A DNA stretch of 64,000 nt from IMG/VR virus record IMGVR_UViG_3300042922_000982, positions 1 to 64,000 of that record; one strand, 5' to 3'. The notes beneath the pieces are model-generated. The model did not search any database, was not told the DNA's origin, and saw only the letters and a list, made by a program, of their open reading frames with translations. Origin of the DNA: a virus. The translations under genes and the position numbers were made by a program. Shown one piece after another: positions 19,024 through 25,182 of the stretch (the first letter of the stretch is position 1; the number at the start of each line of letters is the position of its first letter).

Positions 19024-21822
19024 TTAACCGGCCGTGTGCGTGGCGACGTACTGCGCCTGGGCCATCTCGTACGCCTCGGCCGCCGCACCCCGCAGCGATC
19101 GCCGCATGGTCTCGGGGTCGTTGGTGACGATCGTGACGTGCTGCGCCACCGACACCGCCCCCGCGCTGACGGTCGCCGGGGCGCCCTTGGGGGCGGGCGC
19201 CCCCCAGCCGTCGTCGGCGCTCGCGCCGTTGGGATTGAACTTGATGGTGGGCGCCTGGTTGCGCAGGCTTTCGGGCAGGCTCTCCGGCTTGACCGCGCGC
19301 AGCAGATCGTCCGAGACGATCGCGTTGGACAGGCCGAAGTAGCCGCGCGCGTTGACGAGCTTGCCGTTCTTTTTCGCCTGCCAGTGCAGGTGCGGCCCGC
19401 TGGAGCTGCCGCCGGTCTTGACGCCGCCGTACTTCTGCCCCGACCCGACGATCGTGCCGGGGTCGAGCTTCTGCCCCTTGCGGAACGGCAGCGCCATCGA
19501 CATGTGCATCGTCTGGAACGTGACGCCCGTCGGCTCGCCGGTCTTGGGGTCCAGCTCCGCGAAGTTCATATAGAGCCCGCCCTCCCCGCCCTCCGAGGTG
19601 CCGAGGAACTTGGCGGGCTTGGATCCGATCGTGACGAATTGGCCCGGCTGGTAGTGCCCACGTCCGTTGATGTCGATCAGGTTGGGATTGCCGTCGTGGT
19701 GGACGTGCTTGGGCGCGCCGTTCGGGTGGTAGCCGCCGTCTTGCGCGGCCACCGCCGCCGCCGCCCGCTTGATCGGGTCGGGGCTGTTGCCGTTGATCGC
19801 CCGGTCCGAGCGGTAGATCAGACCCTGGCGCTCGAACTCTTGGAACGCGCGCGTCTGCACCTCGGCCGCGCCGCCCCCGAGGCCGAACAGGCCGGGGTTG
19901 CTCGGCTGGGTCGAGGTGTCGACCTCGGTGTAGCCGCCGCCGCCGCCCATGATGCCCTGCGCCTTGCGCTTGCGGTACGCCTCGCGCTGGGCGGGCGTGC
20001 GCATCTTGTCGGCCATGGCGCGCAGGGCCTGGGCTTGCAGCGGGTTGCCGCCGTTCTCGGCCGCCTGCGCCTGCTGCTCAAGCCCCGCCGCCGCCGGGTT
20101 GTCGAGCATCTCCTGCACCTGCCCGAGCTTGCCGACCAGGCCCATCAATTGGCCGCCGATGGTGCCCAGATTGCCCATGAAGCCCTGGATGTGCGAGAAG
20201 ATGCTGCCCACGCCCGGCATGATCTTGTCGACGAAGAAGTTGGCGAACTTCAGGGTCCACTCCTGGATCGACTTGAACATGGGGAAGAAGGTCGATCCCG
20301 CCTTGTGCCGCAGCTCTTCGGCCAGCTTGTCCACCTCGCGCACCTCGCGCGCCTTCGAGCCGTCTTGCCGCGCCATTCCGGCGCCGATCACGCCGCCGCC
20401 GACCGCCTCGTTGATCGCCTTGCGGTTGCCCCAGTCCTTGAAGCCGCCGGTGGCCTCAAAGAGCTTGCGGGTCTCGCGGAAGCCGAGCCGATCGCCGAAC
20501 GTCTTCTGAAACAGCCGCATGGCGCCCTCGCCGCCGCCGGTCAGGCCGTTCGCCTGCTCGCCGACCGCCTGCAACAGCTCGGGCGAGAGCCCGCCCTCGC
20601 GCAGCTCCATGAGCTGGTAGGGGCTCATTTTGTTGCCGAACTTGGTTAAGAGAGCCTTGTTGATCAGGGTCTCGGAAATGTCGTCGCCGCCGTTGGGCGC
20701 GATCACCTCGTTGAGCTTGCCCATCAAGGAGGCGCCGCGCTGCCCCTGGAACATGCTCTCGCCGGTGGCGTTGAGCTTGGCCTGCACGGCCAGCAGCCCC
20801 ACGCGCTCCTGATCGGTCATGTTGCCGATGCGCTCGCTCACCCCGCCGAGCACGGCGGCGGCGGCCTCGATGGCCTCGGCCGCGCGCGGCATCATCTTGC
20901 CCTGATCGATGCCTGCGGCCACCTCGCGGCTGAACCGGCGCAGATCGCCCTCCTTGAAGGCGCCCGCTTGCCCCATGCGGCCGAACATGCTGGACGTGTA
21001 GCCGCTCTCCAGGCCGAAGCCGCGCGTGAAGCGCAGGCCCGCGTCGATGTCCGGCGTGTTGATGCCGCCCGAGCGCGTGGTGCCGGACCCCATGGCGCCA
21101 GCCAGGCTTTCGGCGAAGGCTTGCGTGTCGGCCCGGCTGTAGAGCAGGCGATCGCCGACGCCGTGAATGTCGTGCGCCATGCCCGACTCGCTTCGGCCGC
21201 CCGCCAGGCGCGTCGACATATTGGCGAGGTGCACGTACTCGCCTGCGACCTCTTGCACCGCCTGGCTGATGTAGGCCACCACGCCGCCCAGGCCGATCAT
21301 GCCGCCAAGGCCGCCGAGCATCTGGCCCACGCCGCCGGTCGCGCCGCCGCCCGCCTGGGCGCGGCGGGGGTTCTGCTCGAAGTGGTGGCGATCGTCGCGG
21401 AAGTTGTCGACGCTCGAACGCGCGTGGTGGCGGCGCTGCTGAATTTGCGTCTCAAGCCGGTTGAGCGCGTCGAGCTTGCGGGTGGTCTTGTCGATTTCGC
21501 GATCGACCTGCTGGAGCCCCGTGGTGATGCCACGGGCCATCATGTCGGCTTTTTGCGTGGTGAGGGCCGCCATGCGGGTCATCTCGGTCGAGATCTTGCC
21601 CGTGACGTCGCGGCTGGTGCGCTCAAGCTCGTGGTAGGCGCGCTCGACCTGGCTGATCGAGCGGCCGAAGGCGCGATCGTCAACCGGGTTGATGTGCCCC
21701 TCGCGGTTGGCGCGCGCCATCGCCTGCTCCAGCTGGCGCATGTGGCGCTCCATCTGGGAGACGGCGGCCGTCGCGCGGCCCATATCCACGTCGGCCGCAA
21801 ACCCCAAGCGTTCGATACTCAT
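19024..21822 (-). CDS. Tape measure protein with M23 peptidase domain
   Basis: A 932-residue protein. The first 150 residues are heptad-like helices (GRATAAVSQMERHMRQLEQAM). A hydrophobic glycine-rich stretch follows near 165-185. Further helices reach about 600. Residues about 705-830 form an M23/LytM zinc-peptidase domain, with an upstream His cluster (KHVHHDG), MHMSMALPFRKGQ and GSSSGPHLHWQ, whose HxH pair binds zinc. Such domains cut peptidoglycan cross-links during DNA entry. The length would set a tail of roughly 140 nm by the usual 0.15 nm per residue rule. Start ATG with AGAGGG upstream. Confidence 0.85.
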   Translation of the reverse strand: MSIERLGFAADVDMGRATAAVSQMERHMRQLEQAMARANREGHINPVDDRAFGRSISQVERAYHELERTSRDVTGKISTEMTRMAALTTQKADMMARGITTGLQQVDREIDKTTRKLDALNRLETQIQQRRHHARSSVDNFRDDRHHFEQNPRRAQAGGGATGGVGQMLGGLGGMIGLGGVVAYISQAVQEVAGEYVHLANMSTRLAGGRSESGMAHDIHGVGDRLLYSRADTQAFAESLAGAMGSGTTRSGGINTPDIDAGLRFTRGFGLESGYTSSMFGRMGQAGAFKEGDLRRFSREVAAGIDQGKMMPRAAEAIEAAAAVLGGVSERIGNMTDQERVGLLAVQAKLNATGESMFQGQRGASLMGKLNEVIAPNGGDDISETLINKALLTKFGNKMSPYQLMELREGGLSPELLQAVGEQANGLTGGGEGAMRLFQKTFGDRLGFRETRKLFEATGGFKDWGNRKAINEAVGGGVIGAGMARQDGSKAREVREVDKLAEELRHKAGSTFFPMFKSIQEWTLKFANFFVDKIMPGVGSIFSHIQGFMGNLGTIGGQLMGLVGKLGQVQEMLDNPAAAGLEQQAQAAENGGNPLQAQALRAMADKMRTPAQREAYRKRKAQGIMGGGGGYTEVDTSTQPSNPGLFGLGGGAAEVQTRAFQEFERQGLIYRSDRAINGNSPDPIKRAAAAVAAQDGGYHPNGAPKHVHHDGNPNLIDINGRGHYQPGQFVTIGSKPAKFLGTSEGGEGGLYMNFAELDPKTGEPTGVTFQTMHMSMALPFRKGQKLDPGTIVGSGQKYGGVKTGGSSSGPHLHWQAKKNGKLVNARGYFGLSNAIVSDDLLRAVKPESLPESLRNQAPTIKFNPNGASADDGWGAPAPKGAPATVSAGAVSVAQHVTIVTNDPETMRRSLRGAAAEAYEMAQAQYVATHTAG

Positions 21823-21840: not shown

Positions 21841-22242
21841 TTACACCTCGTCGCCCGCCAGCAGGTCGACGACCTCAAACACCTGATCCGGCCTCGGCTT
21901 CGGGTTGCGCAGCGCCTTGAGGCGCGCGAGCGCCGCAGCCGGGTCCGCGTTGCCCTGCGCCGCCGTCGGCACGTCGGGGTCGTCGATCACGACCGGCGGG
22001 GGCGGGTTCGCCGCCGCCCTGGCCTTGGCCTCGGCGCTCTGGCGTTCGAACCACTCGTCGGCGGTCTCTTGATCGTCGGCCTCGCGGCCTTCCAATGCCC
22101 AGAATAGCTCAAGATCGAGGCGCGCCTGGGCGTAAGTGACCGCCCTGGCGCGTGGATCGTTCATGGGGATCTTGAAGGTGTGCCGCCAGACCGTCCACCA
22201 GAGGGCCTTGGTGGCCCCCAGGATGGTCGGCAGCTGCGCTTC
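21841..22242 (-). CDS. Tail assembly chaperone, frameshift extension (T part)
   Basis: This frame has no credible start of its own. The only ATG (22164) has no ribosome-binding site, and the coding frame is open well upstream of it into the previous gene. It is therefore most likely read after a +1 shift at the CTT-TGA site, giving a 310-residue G-T fusion (177 + 133). The T part begins EAQLPTILGATKALWW and ends in an acidic tail. In tailed phages the fused product binds the tape measure and recruits tube subunits; its position just upstream of the tape measure fits. Confidence 0.75.
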   Translation of the reverse strand, partial: EAQLPTILGATKALWWTVWRHTFKIPMNDPRARAVTYAQARLDLELFWALEGREADDQETADEWFERQSAEAKARAAANPPPPVVIDDPDVPTAAQGNADPAAALARLKALRNPKPRPDQVFEVVDLLAGDEV

Positions 22243-22252
22243 AAAGTCCTTC
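22239..22252 (-). other. Probable +1 frameshift site (CTT-TGA)
   Basis: On the minus strand the end of the chaperone gene reads GAA GGA CTT TGA A. AAGGA is Shine-Dalgarno-like and sits immediately before CTT-TGA. Sliding the Leu tRNA from CTT to TTT enters the +1 frame, which continues for 133 codons. Bacterial prfB uses the same CTT-TGA slip with a Shine-Dalgarno-like stimulator three bases further upstream. A -2 slip would reach the same frame. Confidence 0.65.
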
Positions 22253-22774
22253 GCGAAATCGATCGCTCCAGCGCGTGTACCAGAATTGGATCAGCAGGAT
22301 CACGCTGCGGTCCTTGATCGTGGTCAAGTTGAACCAATCGGGCTTTTCCTCGAGCATGATCTCGGCGATCGCGGTGCCCTCAAGCAAGGCGGCCAGGCTG
22401 GATCGGACCAGCGTGCCCTGCGAGAGCTGCTCGTAGCGCACCTGCAACTGAAGCTCGTCGTAGAAGCCGGGCTGGCGCACCTTGAAGGTGCCCGCGTGCT
22501 CAGCGTACCACTCGTCGCTGAAGCGCATCTGCTGGCGTTCGACCGGCAGCAAGACCTCGCCCGTGTCCGGGTGCAAGACGGCCTGACGGGTGCCGTTCCA
22601 GGCGTCGACCGCCTGCTTGAGCGTGAAGGTGTCGGTGAAGTCGCTGCCCATGAACACCTTGGCCATCACGGAGGTGGCTTCAGGCGTCAGCACGGGGGTC
22701 TCGGGGGCGGCGTCCTCGGCCTTGTCGGGGGCGGCCGGGGGCGTCTGCGCGGTGCGGTTGGCGTTGGGGTCCAT
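22241..22774 (-). CDS. Tail assembly chaperone (G part)
   Basis: A 177-residue protein between the tail tube and tape measure genes, the canonical position of the G protein. The N-terminus is low-complexity and acidic (KAEDAAPETPV). The remainder is mostly helical and ends FWYTRWSDRFREGL at a TGA. Most ribosomes would stop here; a fraction would shift +1 to make the 310-residue G-T fusion. AAGGAGA precedes the ATG. No sequence family is clear; the call is from position plus the overlapping reading frames. Confidence 0.8.
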   Translation of the reverse strand: MDPNANRTAQTPPAAPDKAEDAAPETPVLTPEATSVMAKVFMGSDFTDTFTLKQAVDAWNGTRQAVLHPDTGEVLLPVERQQMRFSDEWYAEHAGTFKVRQPGFYDELQLQVRYEQLSQGTLVRSSLAALLEGTAIAEIMLEEKPDWFNLTTIKDRSVILLIQFWYTRWSDRFREGL

Positions 22775-22870: not shown

Positions 22871-23362
22871 CTACTGGGTAATGGCCGGGGCCGACGGGGT
22901 CAGACCCGTCTGCGCCGGGGCCTGCTCGGCGCCCGTGGCGCCGCCCTTCGAGGCCGTGCGGAAGAACATGGTGGCGTTCTCGCCGCAGATCTCGCCCTGG
23001 CGGATCGTCTCGCGGTAACGCTGGATCACGCAGTCCTCGTAATTGCGCAGCGTCAGGCCGTTCTCGTCGTGGAGGGTCACTTCGAGCACTTCGAGGTCCA
23101 GGATCTCCTTGCCCAGGGCGGCGACGCCCAGGTTGACGAGATCCTGCTCGCGGATCATGAAGGTGTCGAGCGTGAGCGTGCCGTTGAACTTCAAGAACAC
23201 ATGCTCAGCCGCCTCGTAGTCGCCCACGCCGTGGACGGCCTGCGTGCCGAAGTCGTGATCGGCGTCGAAGGACTGGGCGCGGCCGGAACCGATCTCCGTG
23301 CCCGCCAGGTAGATTTTCGCTTGAAGGTGCGAGCGCACCTTCTGAGTGGTACGGGATGCCAT
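22871..23362 (-). CDS. Tail tube protein
   Basis: A 163-residue protein directly after the sheath gene, the invariant order for contractile tails. It is strand-rich with FNGTLTLDTFMIREQDL and DLEVLEVTLHDENG segments typical of tube monomers. The last 25 residues are low-complexity (GATGAEQAPAQTG). Start ATG with GAGGAGAG upstream. The size and position make the assignment firm even without a search. Confidence 0.85.
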   Translation of the reverse strand: MASRTTQKVRSHLQAKIYLAGTEIGSGRAQSFDADHDFGTQAVHGVGDYEAAEHVFLKFNGTLTLDTFMIREQDLVNLGVAALGKEILDLEVLEVTLHDENGLTLRNYEDCVIQRYRETIRQGEICGENATMFFRTASKGGATGAEQAPAQTGLTPSAPAITQ

Positions 23363-23388: not shown

Positions 23389-25182
23389 CTACGCCGCCAC
23401 GCCCTGGACAGCGGCCCAGTGCGCGGTGATGGTGATGTAGTTCCCCGGCTCGGCGATGGACGCCTCGAACTCGACGCTGTAGGTGCGGTTCGAGAAGGTG
23501 ACCTTCACGTTGCGGAAGGGCTTGACCGCCTTGCCGTCCTTCAGGCCGCCGACCAGCATGCCTTCCTTGGCCGCCAGGTCGAGCATCTTCTCGACGTCGC
23601 GCTTGATCTGACCGAGGCGGATGTTCATCTCGCTGGTGGGCGGGATGCCGACGTACTTCTCCTCGAGCAGCTCCTCCATGTTGGTCAGAATGGTGTCCGA
23701 CACATGCAGCACCGACGGCTCGGAGGCCAGGGTGTTGGTGGTGCGGATTTGGGCCAGCTGGCCGATGCCGATGCGGAAGCCCTTCTTCGTCTTGGCGACG
23801 TAGGAGGCCGCCGCGCTGATCACCTCTTCCTTCTGGGTCGGGTCGTAGTCGCCCTCCAGGCCCTTGATCAGCACGTACTTGCCGGTCAGCGAGTCCTGCG
23901 GCTTGCCGCCCGCCTTGATGCCCGCCATCGCGGCGGCAAGCAGCCAGGAGGGGAAGAGCTTCTCGGCGCCCTTGTCCTCGACCTTGATGCCGGGGGTGGC
24001 CATCAAGACGCGCTCGCTGTTGAGCTTGAAGATGCGCTCGGCGAGCGCCGTGATGTCGGTCGAGCCGTCGGGGTTGAACACGACCTCGCCGAGCGCGTGG
24101 CCGAAGTAGGCCGTGCGGCGCATCTTGATCTTGATGTCGCTCATGGCCAGGCAGTGCTCCAGGGCCGCGCCCTGCACCAGGTCGTCGTCGGTGCACGGGA
24201 CCAGGAAGTAGCCGGGCTCGGCGGCCAGCTTGGCGAAGGCGGCCTTGTAGTCGTCGAGCGTGGCCGTGCCCTCGGCGCCGCCCGAGAGGAACGTGGGGGC
24301 CGTCACGGCCACCGGGGCCACGTTGCTCTTGAACTCGGCGACCGCGCAGACCGCAAAGCGGTTGATGAACTCGACGCAGGCGCCGTTGATCGCCGTGAGC
24401 TTGGCGGCCGTCGCCGTGAGCGCCACCGGGGTGCCGATCGGGTCGAGCCACTCGCTCTTCATCTGGGCCGCGCCCAGGACCTTCACGTTGAAGCCGGTCT
24501 GGCTCTGCAACAGGTCGGCCAGTTTCTCGATGGTGTCCACGGCGGGATCCGTGAGGTCCACCTGGAACGAGGTCGAGCCGTCGGTCGCGCCGGTCACGCT
24601 CACCGTCAAGGTCGGCACGGTCGCAACCAGGCCCACGTCGATGGTGCAGGCCGAGCCGTTGCCGGTGTAGGCGATGGCGAGCACGTTGCCCAGGTCGGTC
24701 GAGATCTGATCGACCTTGTCCGAGATCTTCTTGATCACGACGCGGCGCAGATCGGGGTCATCCTTGCCCGCCAGGATGCCGACCTGGGTGCCGACGCCGT
24801 GCTTGCCCCAGTCGCGGTCGAACACGTCGAACGCCTCGGCCGGGGTGCCCGCCGTATCGAGGAACGTGAGCTTCGCGCGCGTGGCCTGGTTGACCCGCAA
24901 GGCGATGATCACGTCCGCGCCCTTCGACTCGGGGCTCGGCGTCCAGGCGGCACGGGCCGCCGCGTGCAGCGGGCCGCCGCGCAGAACCTTGAGCGCGCGC
25001 TCCTTCGAGCCCGCCGAGAAATACAGCGGCTTGTTCGGCTCGCCGCCCTCGCTGGTGCCGACCAGCATGACCACGTTCAACGCGCCGATGCGAATTTCCA
25101 CCATCTCGGACGCGTCGCCGAAGCCGTACGCGCCCGGAATCAGGATGGTGCGCCCGGCAAAAGTGATGCCCTTGGTAGCCAC
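23389..25182 (-). CDS. Tail sheath protein
   Basis: A 597-residue protein. The N-terminal domain contains GALNVVMLVGTSEGGEPN. A variable insertion lies around 190-330. The C-terminal sheath domain carries FRIGIGQLAQIRTTNT, then a helix-strand end (KVTFSNRTYSVEFEASIAEPGNYITITAHW), as in phage contractile sheaths. The start is GTG at 25182 with GAGGAGG upstream. With the tube it should be among the most abundant late products. Confidence 0.9.
   Translation of the reverse strand: MATKGITFAGRTILIPGAYGFGDASEMVEIRIGALNVVMLVGTSEGGEPNKPLYFSAGSKERALKVLRGGPLHAAARAAWTPSPESKGADVIIALRVNQATRAKLTFLDTAGTPAEAFDVFDRDWGKHGVGTQVGILAGKDDPDLRRVVIKKISDKVDQISTDLGNVLAIAYTGNGSACTIDVGLVATVPTLTVSVTGATDGSTSFQVDLTDPAVDTIEKLADLLQSQTGFNVKVLGAAQMKSEWLDPIGTPVALTATAAKLTAINGACVEFINRFAVCAVAEFKSNVAPVAVTAPTFLSGGAEGTATLDDYKAAFAKLAAEPGYFLVPCTDDDLVQGAALEHCLAMSDIKIKMRRTAYFGHALGEVVFNPDGSTDITALAERIFKLNSERVLMATPGIKVEDKGAEKLFPSWLLAAAMAGIKAGGKPQDSLTGKYVLIKGLEGDYDPTQKEEVISAAASYVAKTKKGFRIGIGQLAQIRTTNTLASEPSVLHVSDTILTNMEELLEEKYVGIPPTSEMNIRLGQIKRDVEKMLDLAAKEGMLVGGLKDGKAVKPFRNVKVTFSNRTYSVEFEASIAEPGNYITITAHWAAVQGVAA

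What the first reader, a model, noticed from the sequence alone, without database searches (positions are those of the whole stretch)
22239..22252. RF2-like +1 frameshift (CTT-TGA) in the tail assembly chaperone
The G frame ends GAA GGA CTT TGA. The +1 frame stays open for 133 codons and lacks a plausible start. CTT-TGA with an adjacent Shine-Dalgarno-like AAGGA is the layout of the bacterial prfB autoregulatory site. Most known chaperone shifts are -1 (lambda type), with -2 in Mu and +1 in Listeria PSA. A release-factor-sensitive +1 site here would tie tail assembly to UGA termination efficiency.
Basis: partly seen in the sequence, partly recalled or inferred. Interest (0 to 1): 0.75.

Follow-up and report, generated by a model that had tools for sequence, protein, structure and literature searches.

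The report
Tail-chaperone frameshift, but at TTT-CGC

Summary
In detail: on the minus strand the G-type tail assembly chaperone ends CGA TTT CGC GAA GGA CTT TGA, and the +1 frame stays open for 133 codons, up to the tape-measure gene. A +1 frameshift joining the two is well supported: G matches relatives' G profile (E 7e-10) and the +1-frame T part matches relatives' T profile (E 7e-5), including a stretch upstream of T's first ATG.

The site is almost certainly not CTT_TGA. In 52 of 52 distinct chaperone genes (82 loci; phages of Bacillota, Pseudomonadota and Thermus, plus IMG/VR contigs) exactly one in-frame TTT_C lies in the overlap, 50 times as TTT_CGN. The G stop is TGA, TAA or TAG, 9 to 144 nt downstream. 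CTT_TGA occurs in only 4 of 52, always with TTT_CGN upstream. Codon usage between the two sites favours the +1 frame about 1500-fold.

The prfB analogy fails on spacing (AAGGA abuts CTT; prfB has a 3-nt spacer) and on the base after TGA (A, not C). This is the SPO1-type +1 frameshift (gp10.2/gp11.1 is annotated so). The site resembles influenza PA-X UCC_UUU_CGU. All evidence is comparative; no protein was measured.

The parts
22244..22774 (-). G: tail assembly chaperone, short form, 177 aa (stop TGA at 22243-22241)
   Evidence: PHROG 25000 and 1038 tail assembly chaperone, E 2e-5 and 3.5e-4; hhalign to relatives' G parts E 6.6e-10, match running up to the slip-site Phe; position between tube and tape measure
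22253..22258 (-). +1 slip site TTT_CGC
   Evidence: TTT_C in 52 of 52 distinct relatives, TTT_CGN in 50 of 52; only TTT_CGN in 16 window genes
22241..22246 (-).
   Evidence: CTT_TGA in 4 of 52; G stops in relatives TGA 23, TAA 21, TAG 8
21841..22254 (-). T part read in the +1 frame after the slip (137 aa, with its stop codon), C-terminal half of a 310-aa G-T fusion
   Evidence: Fusion translation; hhalign to relatives' T parts E 7e-5; codon usage
22167..22249 (-). Strong predicted RNA hairpin just downstream of the slip site; possible local stimulator
   Evidence: MFE -45 kcal/mol for 22252-22153, z -3.8; around the lowest 1% of 303 windows of this region; relatives' median z only -1.05
19024..21822 (-). 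Tape-measure / tail lysin protein, directly after T
   Evidence: phrog_13572 E 2.5e-17
22871..23362 (-). Tail tube protein
   Evidence: phrog_985 E 1.9e-32; tblastn to Herelleviridae tube proteins
23389..25182 (-). Tail sheath protein
   Evidence: phrog_279 E 8e-48; tblastn to SPO1 gp9.1 and others

Best explanation
The gene pair is expressed as G (177 aa) and, in a fraction of translations, as a G-T fusion (310 aa) made by a +1 ribosomal frameshift at TTT_CGC. With tRNA-Phe (anticodon GAA) on UUU in the P site, the tRNA slips forward by one base onto UUC, which it pairs with perfectly, before CGC is decoded; translation resumes at GCG AAG GAC. G and G-T then act as the tail assembly chaperone pair around the tape-measure protein, as in the lambda G/GT model. 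Shown here: the ORF layout, the homology of both halves and the conservation of the slip site. Inferred: that slipping happens, its efficiency, the tRNA mechanism and the chaperone function.
For: 52 of 52 distinct relatives (82 loci) have exactly one in-frame TTT_C in the overlap with the +1 frame open behind it; 50 are TTT_CGN, 2 are TTT_CAA. The G stop lies 9-144 nt further on and can be TGA, TAA or TAG. By each genome's codon usage, chance of TTT at all 52 Phe positions about 10^-22 and of CGN at all Arg positions about 10^-11, ignoring relatedness; other TTT codons in the same genes are followed by C in 14 of 138 cases. In the window TTT is 22 of 207 Phe codons and this is the only TTT_CGN in 16 genes. 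Between the two candidate sites the 0-frame codons GAA GGA CTT are rare and the +1 codons GCG AAG GAC common, ratio 10^3.2. G and T match relatives' profiles, T upstream of its first ATG. SPO1 gp10.2-gp11.1 is annotated as a +1 slippage product. UUU_C slippage is the reading given for the influenza PA-X site UCC_UUU_CGU (PMC3498833).
Against: No protein or reporter data. No close relative of this phage was found, so the site's conservation is seen only across large distances. CGC is the commonest Arg codon here, so a slow A-site codon does not explain the pause. The cell counts are not independent, because the relatives share ancestry.
Confidence: 0.9

Rival explanations
1. prfB-like +1 shift at CTT_TGA, helped by AAGGA and sensitive to RF2, as proposed by the first reader, as the only or main site.
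For: CTT_TGA is present; UUU re-pairing of tRNA-Leu(GAG) is the known prfB mechanism (PMC13245932). G is the only one of 16 structural genes ending in TGA.
Against: CTT_TGA in 4 of 52 relatives only, each of which also has TTT_CGN; stops often TAA or TAG and far from the slip. AAGGA abuts CTT with no 3-nt spacer, and A follows TGA instead of C. Codon usage upstream of CTT already fits the +1 frame.
Confidence: 0.03
2. Two +1 sites in series: TTT_CGC as the main site and CTT_TGA as a second chance that adds a UGA-dependent share. Both give products of the same length.
For: Both sites lie in the open overlap four codons apart. The same pairing TTT_CGN CTT TGA occurs in BSP38, L076 and L078.
Against: Those three are similar phages, so the pairing is seen in about two lineages, which chance can give. 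The prfB enhancers are missing.
Confidence: 0.07
3. T is translated on its own from the ATG at 22164 and there is no frameshift.
For: There is an in-frame ATG; several relatives' records list T as a separate gene.
Against: The conserved part of T begins 16 residues before that ATG; codon usage fits the +1 frame from the slip onward; no clear Shine-Dalgarno before the ATG.
Confidence: 0.03
4. Assembly or sequencing error splitting one continuous gene.
For: The record is an IMG/VR contig, seen once.
Against: All 52 distinct relatives, including independently sequenced cultured phages, have the same split and the same shift direction.
Confidence: 0.01

Closest known systems
Bacillus phage SPO1 gp10.2/gp11.1 tail assembly chaperone (Herelleviridae)
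   Same: Same gene order (sheath, tube, G, T, tape measure), homologous G and T profiles, +1 direction, in-frame TTT_CGT in the overlap
   Different: Very divergent sequence (sheath 28% identity); 68% GC; CGA instead of TCC before TTT; G stop 15 instead of 51 nt after TTT; CTT_TGA and a strong downstream hairpin in the window. Where SPO1's annotators placed the slip could not be read.
Influenza A PA-X +1 frameshift site UCC_UUU_CGU (PMC3498833)
   Same: Same P-site UUU_C slip and CGN in the A site; SPO1 and others even have TCC_TTT_CGT
   Different: Unrelated gene and eukaryotic ribosomes; a likeness of the site only, convergent as far as can be told
Bacterial prfB (RF2) autoregulatory +1 frameshift
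   Same: +1 shift onto UUU at CTT_TGA would be possible in principle
   Different: SD-like motif has no 3-nt spacer, A instead of C follows TGA, site not conserved in relatives, stops often TAA/TAG and distant
Lambda G/GT (-1), Mu (-2) and Listeria PSA (+1) frameshifts (PMC5009743, PMC3498833)
   Same: Low-level shift near the 3' end of a structural-module gene; in lambda and Mu the same chaperone role before the tape-measure gene
   Different: Lambda is -1 and Mu -2; PSA's +1 shifts are at CCC in the capsid and tail-shaft genes, not in the chaperone

Membership tests
SPO1-type tail assembly chaperone with +1 frameshift | Gene order sheath, tube, G, T, tape measure | tested here: met
SPO1-type tail assembly chaperone with +1 frameshift | G homologous to SPO1-type G | tested here: met
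   hhalign E 6.6e-10; PHROG chaperone families
SPO1-type tail assembly chaperone with +1 frameshift | T in the +1 frame, homologous to relatives' T | tested here: met
   hhalign E 7e-5, 60 shuffles all lower
SPO1-type tail assembly chaperone with +1 frameshift | In-frame TTT_CGN in the overlap (feature found here) | tested here: met
   50 of 52, and TTT_C in 52 of 52
SPO1-type tail assembly chaperone with +1 frameshift | Fusion protein is made | not testable with these tools
   needs mass spectrometry or a reporter
prfB-type frameshift site | CTT TGA shifty stop | tested here: met
   22246-22241
prfB-type frameshift site | SD-like AGGGGG motif 3 nt before CTT | tested here: not met
   AAGGA directly abuts CTT (against PMC12421855, PMC13245932)
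prfB-type frameshift site | C after TGA | tested here: not met
   A follows
prfB-type frameshift site | Site conserved among homologues of the same gene | tested here: not met
   CTT_TGA in 4 of 52
prfB-type frameshift site | Shift depends on RF2 level | not testable with these tools
   needs a reporter with varied RF2

The most novel reading that the evidence does not exclude
The phage uses two +1 sites in series: the family-wide TTT_CGC site and, four codons later, a lineage-specific CTT_TGA that makes part of the fusion yield depend on UGA termination.
Probability: 0.07. Interest if true: 0.65.

Novelty: new member of a known kind. Interest (0 to 1): 0.45.

Why it matters
For this phage it is one more SPO1-type +1 frameshift in a tail chaperone. 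The wider result is more interesting: TTT_C, nearly always TTT_CGN, is kept in every related tail-chaperone gene examined, across phages of Bacillota, Pseudomonadota and Thermus. That suggests a +1 shift signal used on bacterial ribosomes with the same form as influenza's PA-X site, although of the annotated relatives fetched only SPO1 carries a frameshift annotation. I found no paper saying this in the open-access library searched, but the 2009 SPO1 genome paper and most subscription journals are not held, so it may be known.

Tried and rejected
Close relatives: IMG/VR scans with the window's G, tube, sheath, capsid and tape-measure proteins found none, and tblastn of G against phages found nothing. 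The sheath alignment was too divergent to scan with, and the tube alignment failed for genome contigs.

SD-like stimulator upstream of TTT: 14 of 52 against a 29% background, so not a family feature, although several phages of Gram-negative hosts carry AAGGAG-like runs 5-7 nt upstream. Downstream RNA structure as a general stimulator: strong in the window but median z only -1.05 in relatives. Rare A-site codon as cause of the pause: CGC is the commonest Arg codon in this phage.

-1 shift: that frame closes 27 codons after the G stop and has poor codon usage. -2 shift: reaches the same frame as +1, but no slippery repeat supports it at TTT_CGC (my judgement, not computed).

Literature searches for a report of this motif in phages found none in the held library.

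Full report
What is there. The window is part of a 157,406-base IMG/VR virus record with 68% GC in the window. The minus strand carries a contractile-tail module in SPO1 order: sheath 25182..23389, tube 23362..22871, G 22774..22241, an open +1 frame 22290..21841, tape measure 21822..19024. The sheath and tube match Herelleviridae and, for the sheath, phages of Bordetella, Pseudomonas, Aeromonas and Thermus, at roughly 20-40% identity. G matches two PHROG tail-assembly-chaperone families weakly (E 2e-5 and 3.5e-4).

G ends CGA TTT CGC GAA GGA CTT TGA and the +1 frame runs 133 codons past the stop. An open frame of that length is not surprising by itself at this GC, since the mechanical ORF list is full of long spurious frames. 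The support comes from elsewhere. The +1 peptide matches the T parts of relatives (hhalign score 31.6, E 7e-5; best of 60 shuffles 18.7), and the match spans residues 15-48 of T, starting 16 residues before T's first ATG. Codon usage favours the G frame before the slip and the +1 frame after it.

Where the slip is. I took the chaperone gene from 22 related phage records and 59 IMG/VR loci, 82 with the window and 52 after removing near-duplicates. In every one, exactly one in-frame TTT followed by C lies in the overlap; 50 of 52 read TTT_CGN and two read TTT_CAA. The next most shared codon-plus-base word occurs in 20 of 52. The profile match of the window's G runs up to this Phe. The distance from TTT to the G stop ranges from 9 to 144 nt and the stop is TGA 23, TAA 21, TAG 8 times. 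In phages where the stop lies about 100 nt downstream (ST4, Mecenats66, phiT5282EW, fHe-Yen8-01), the +1-frame peptide between slip and stop is clearly alike among them, so there the shift cannot be at the stop codon.

This is not just a conserved Phe-Arg pair. Using each genome's own codon usage, the chance that all 52 Phe codons are TTT is about 10^-22, and that all the Arg codons are CGN about 10^-11. Relatedness makes both figures too extreme, but the contrast is large. Other Phe codons in the same genes are split 138 TTT to 127 TTC, and other TTT codons are followed by C in only 14 of 138 cases. In the window TTT is 22 of 207 Phe codons and this is the only TTT_CGN in 16 structural genes.

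The window alone also tells the two sites apart. Between TTT_CGC and CTT_TGA the 0-frame codons are GAA GGA CTT (9.6, 2.1 and 3.6 per 1000 codons), while the +1-frame codons are GCG AAG GAC (42.8, 48.5 and 53.7 per 1000), a ratio of about 10^3.2. That is what is expected if the stretch is read in the +1 frame already from TTT_CGC. It is only three codons, so it is supporting evidence.

The prfB comparison. The prfB site has an AGGGGG-like SD, a 3-nt spacer, CTT TGA and a C after TGA, all nearly universal (PMC12421855, PMC13245932). Here AAGGA touches CTT without a spacer and TGA is followed by A. CTT_TGA is in 4 of 52 genes: the window and three similar phages (BSP38, L076, L078), each with TTT_CGN just upstream. 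A minor second-chance role for CTT_TGA cannot be excluded.

Mechanism, as inference. UUU read by tRNA-Phe (anticodon GAA) re-pairs perfectly on UUC one base on. That fits the invariance of TTT_C and matches the reading of the influenza PA-X site UCC_UUU_CGU (PMC3498833). Why CGN follows is unclear: CGC is the commonest Arg codon in this phage, so slow decoding is not an obvious cause. The codon before TTT is from a narrow set (TCC 15, ACC 15, AAC 8, CGA 4, others 10), which may point to an E-site effect. The window has a strong hairpin just downstream (z -3.8; around the lowest 1% of 303 windows), but relatives as a group do not, so it may be a local stimulator or chance.

What is known. The SPO1 record annotates gp10.2-gp11.1 as +1 ribosomal slippage. 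Of the annotated relatives fetched, only SPO1 carries a joined feature; others list T as a separate gene, in several RefSeq records under the name 'RNA polymerase beta subunit'. I could not read where SPO1's annotators placed the slip, nor the SPO1 genome paper. The held library gave no report of the TTT_CGN motif in phages. The proper filing is a new member of the SPO1-type +1 chaperone frameshift. No protein was measured.

Noticed in passing
window 1-64000: Stop codons are TAG-rich (TAG 42, TAA 28, TGA 12 in 82 predicted genes) although GC is 68%, where TGA would be expected to dominate; G is the only TGA-ending gene predicted on the minus strand.
   Followed up: partly
window 22153-22252 (-): Strong predicted RNA hairpin directly downstream of the slip site (MFE -45 kcal/mol, z -3.8), not shared by most relatives.
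   Followed up: partly
L012, L014, L015, L017, L018: The T reading frame of several Herelleviridae RefSeq records is annotated 'RNA polymerase beta subunit' and not joined to the tail assembly chaperone gene; it looks like the +1-frame half of the chaperone fusion.
   Followed up: partly
L064 3018-3458, L065 8151-8648: Two IMG/VR relatives have TTT_CAA instead of TTT_CGN at the slip position, which separates the invariant TTT_C from the nearly invariant CGN.
   Followed up: partly
window 22259-22261 (-) and Lalka8, fHe-Yen8-01, Mecenats66: Four phages of otherwise different groups have CGA, a rare codon in this phage, just before TTT_CGN, while most others have TCC, ACC or AAC.
   Followed up: no
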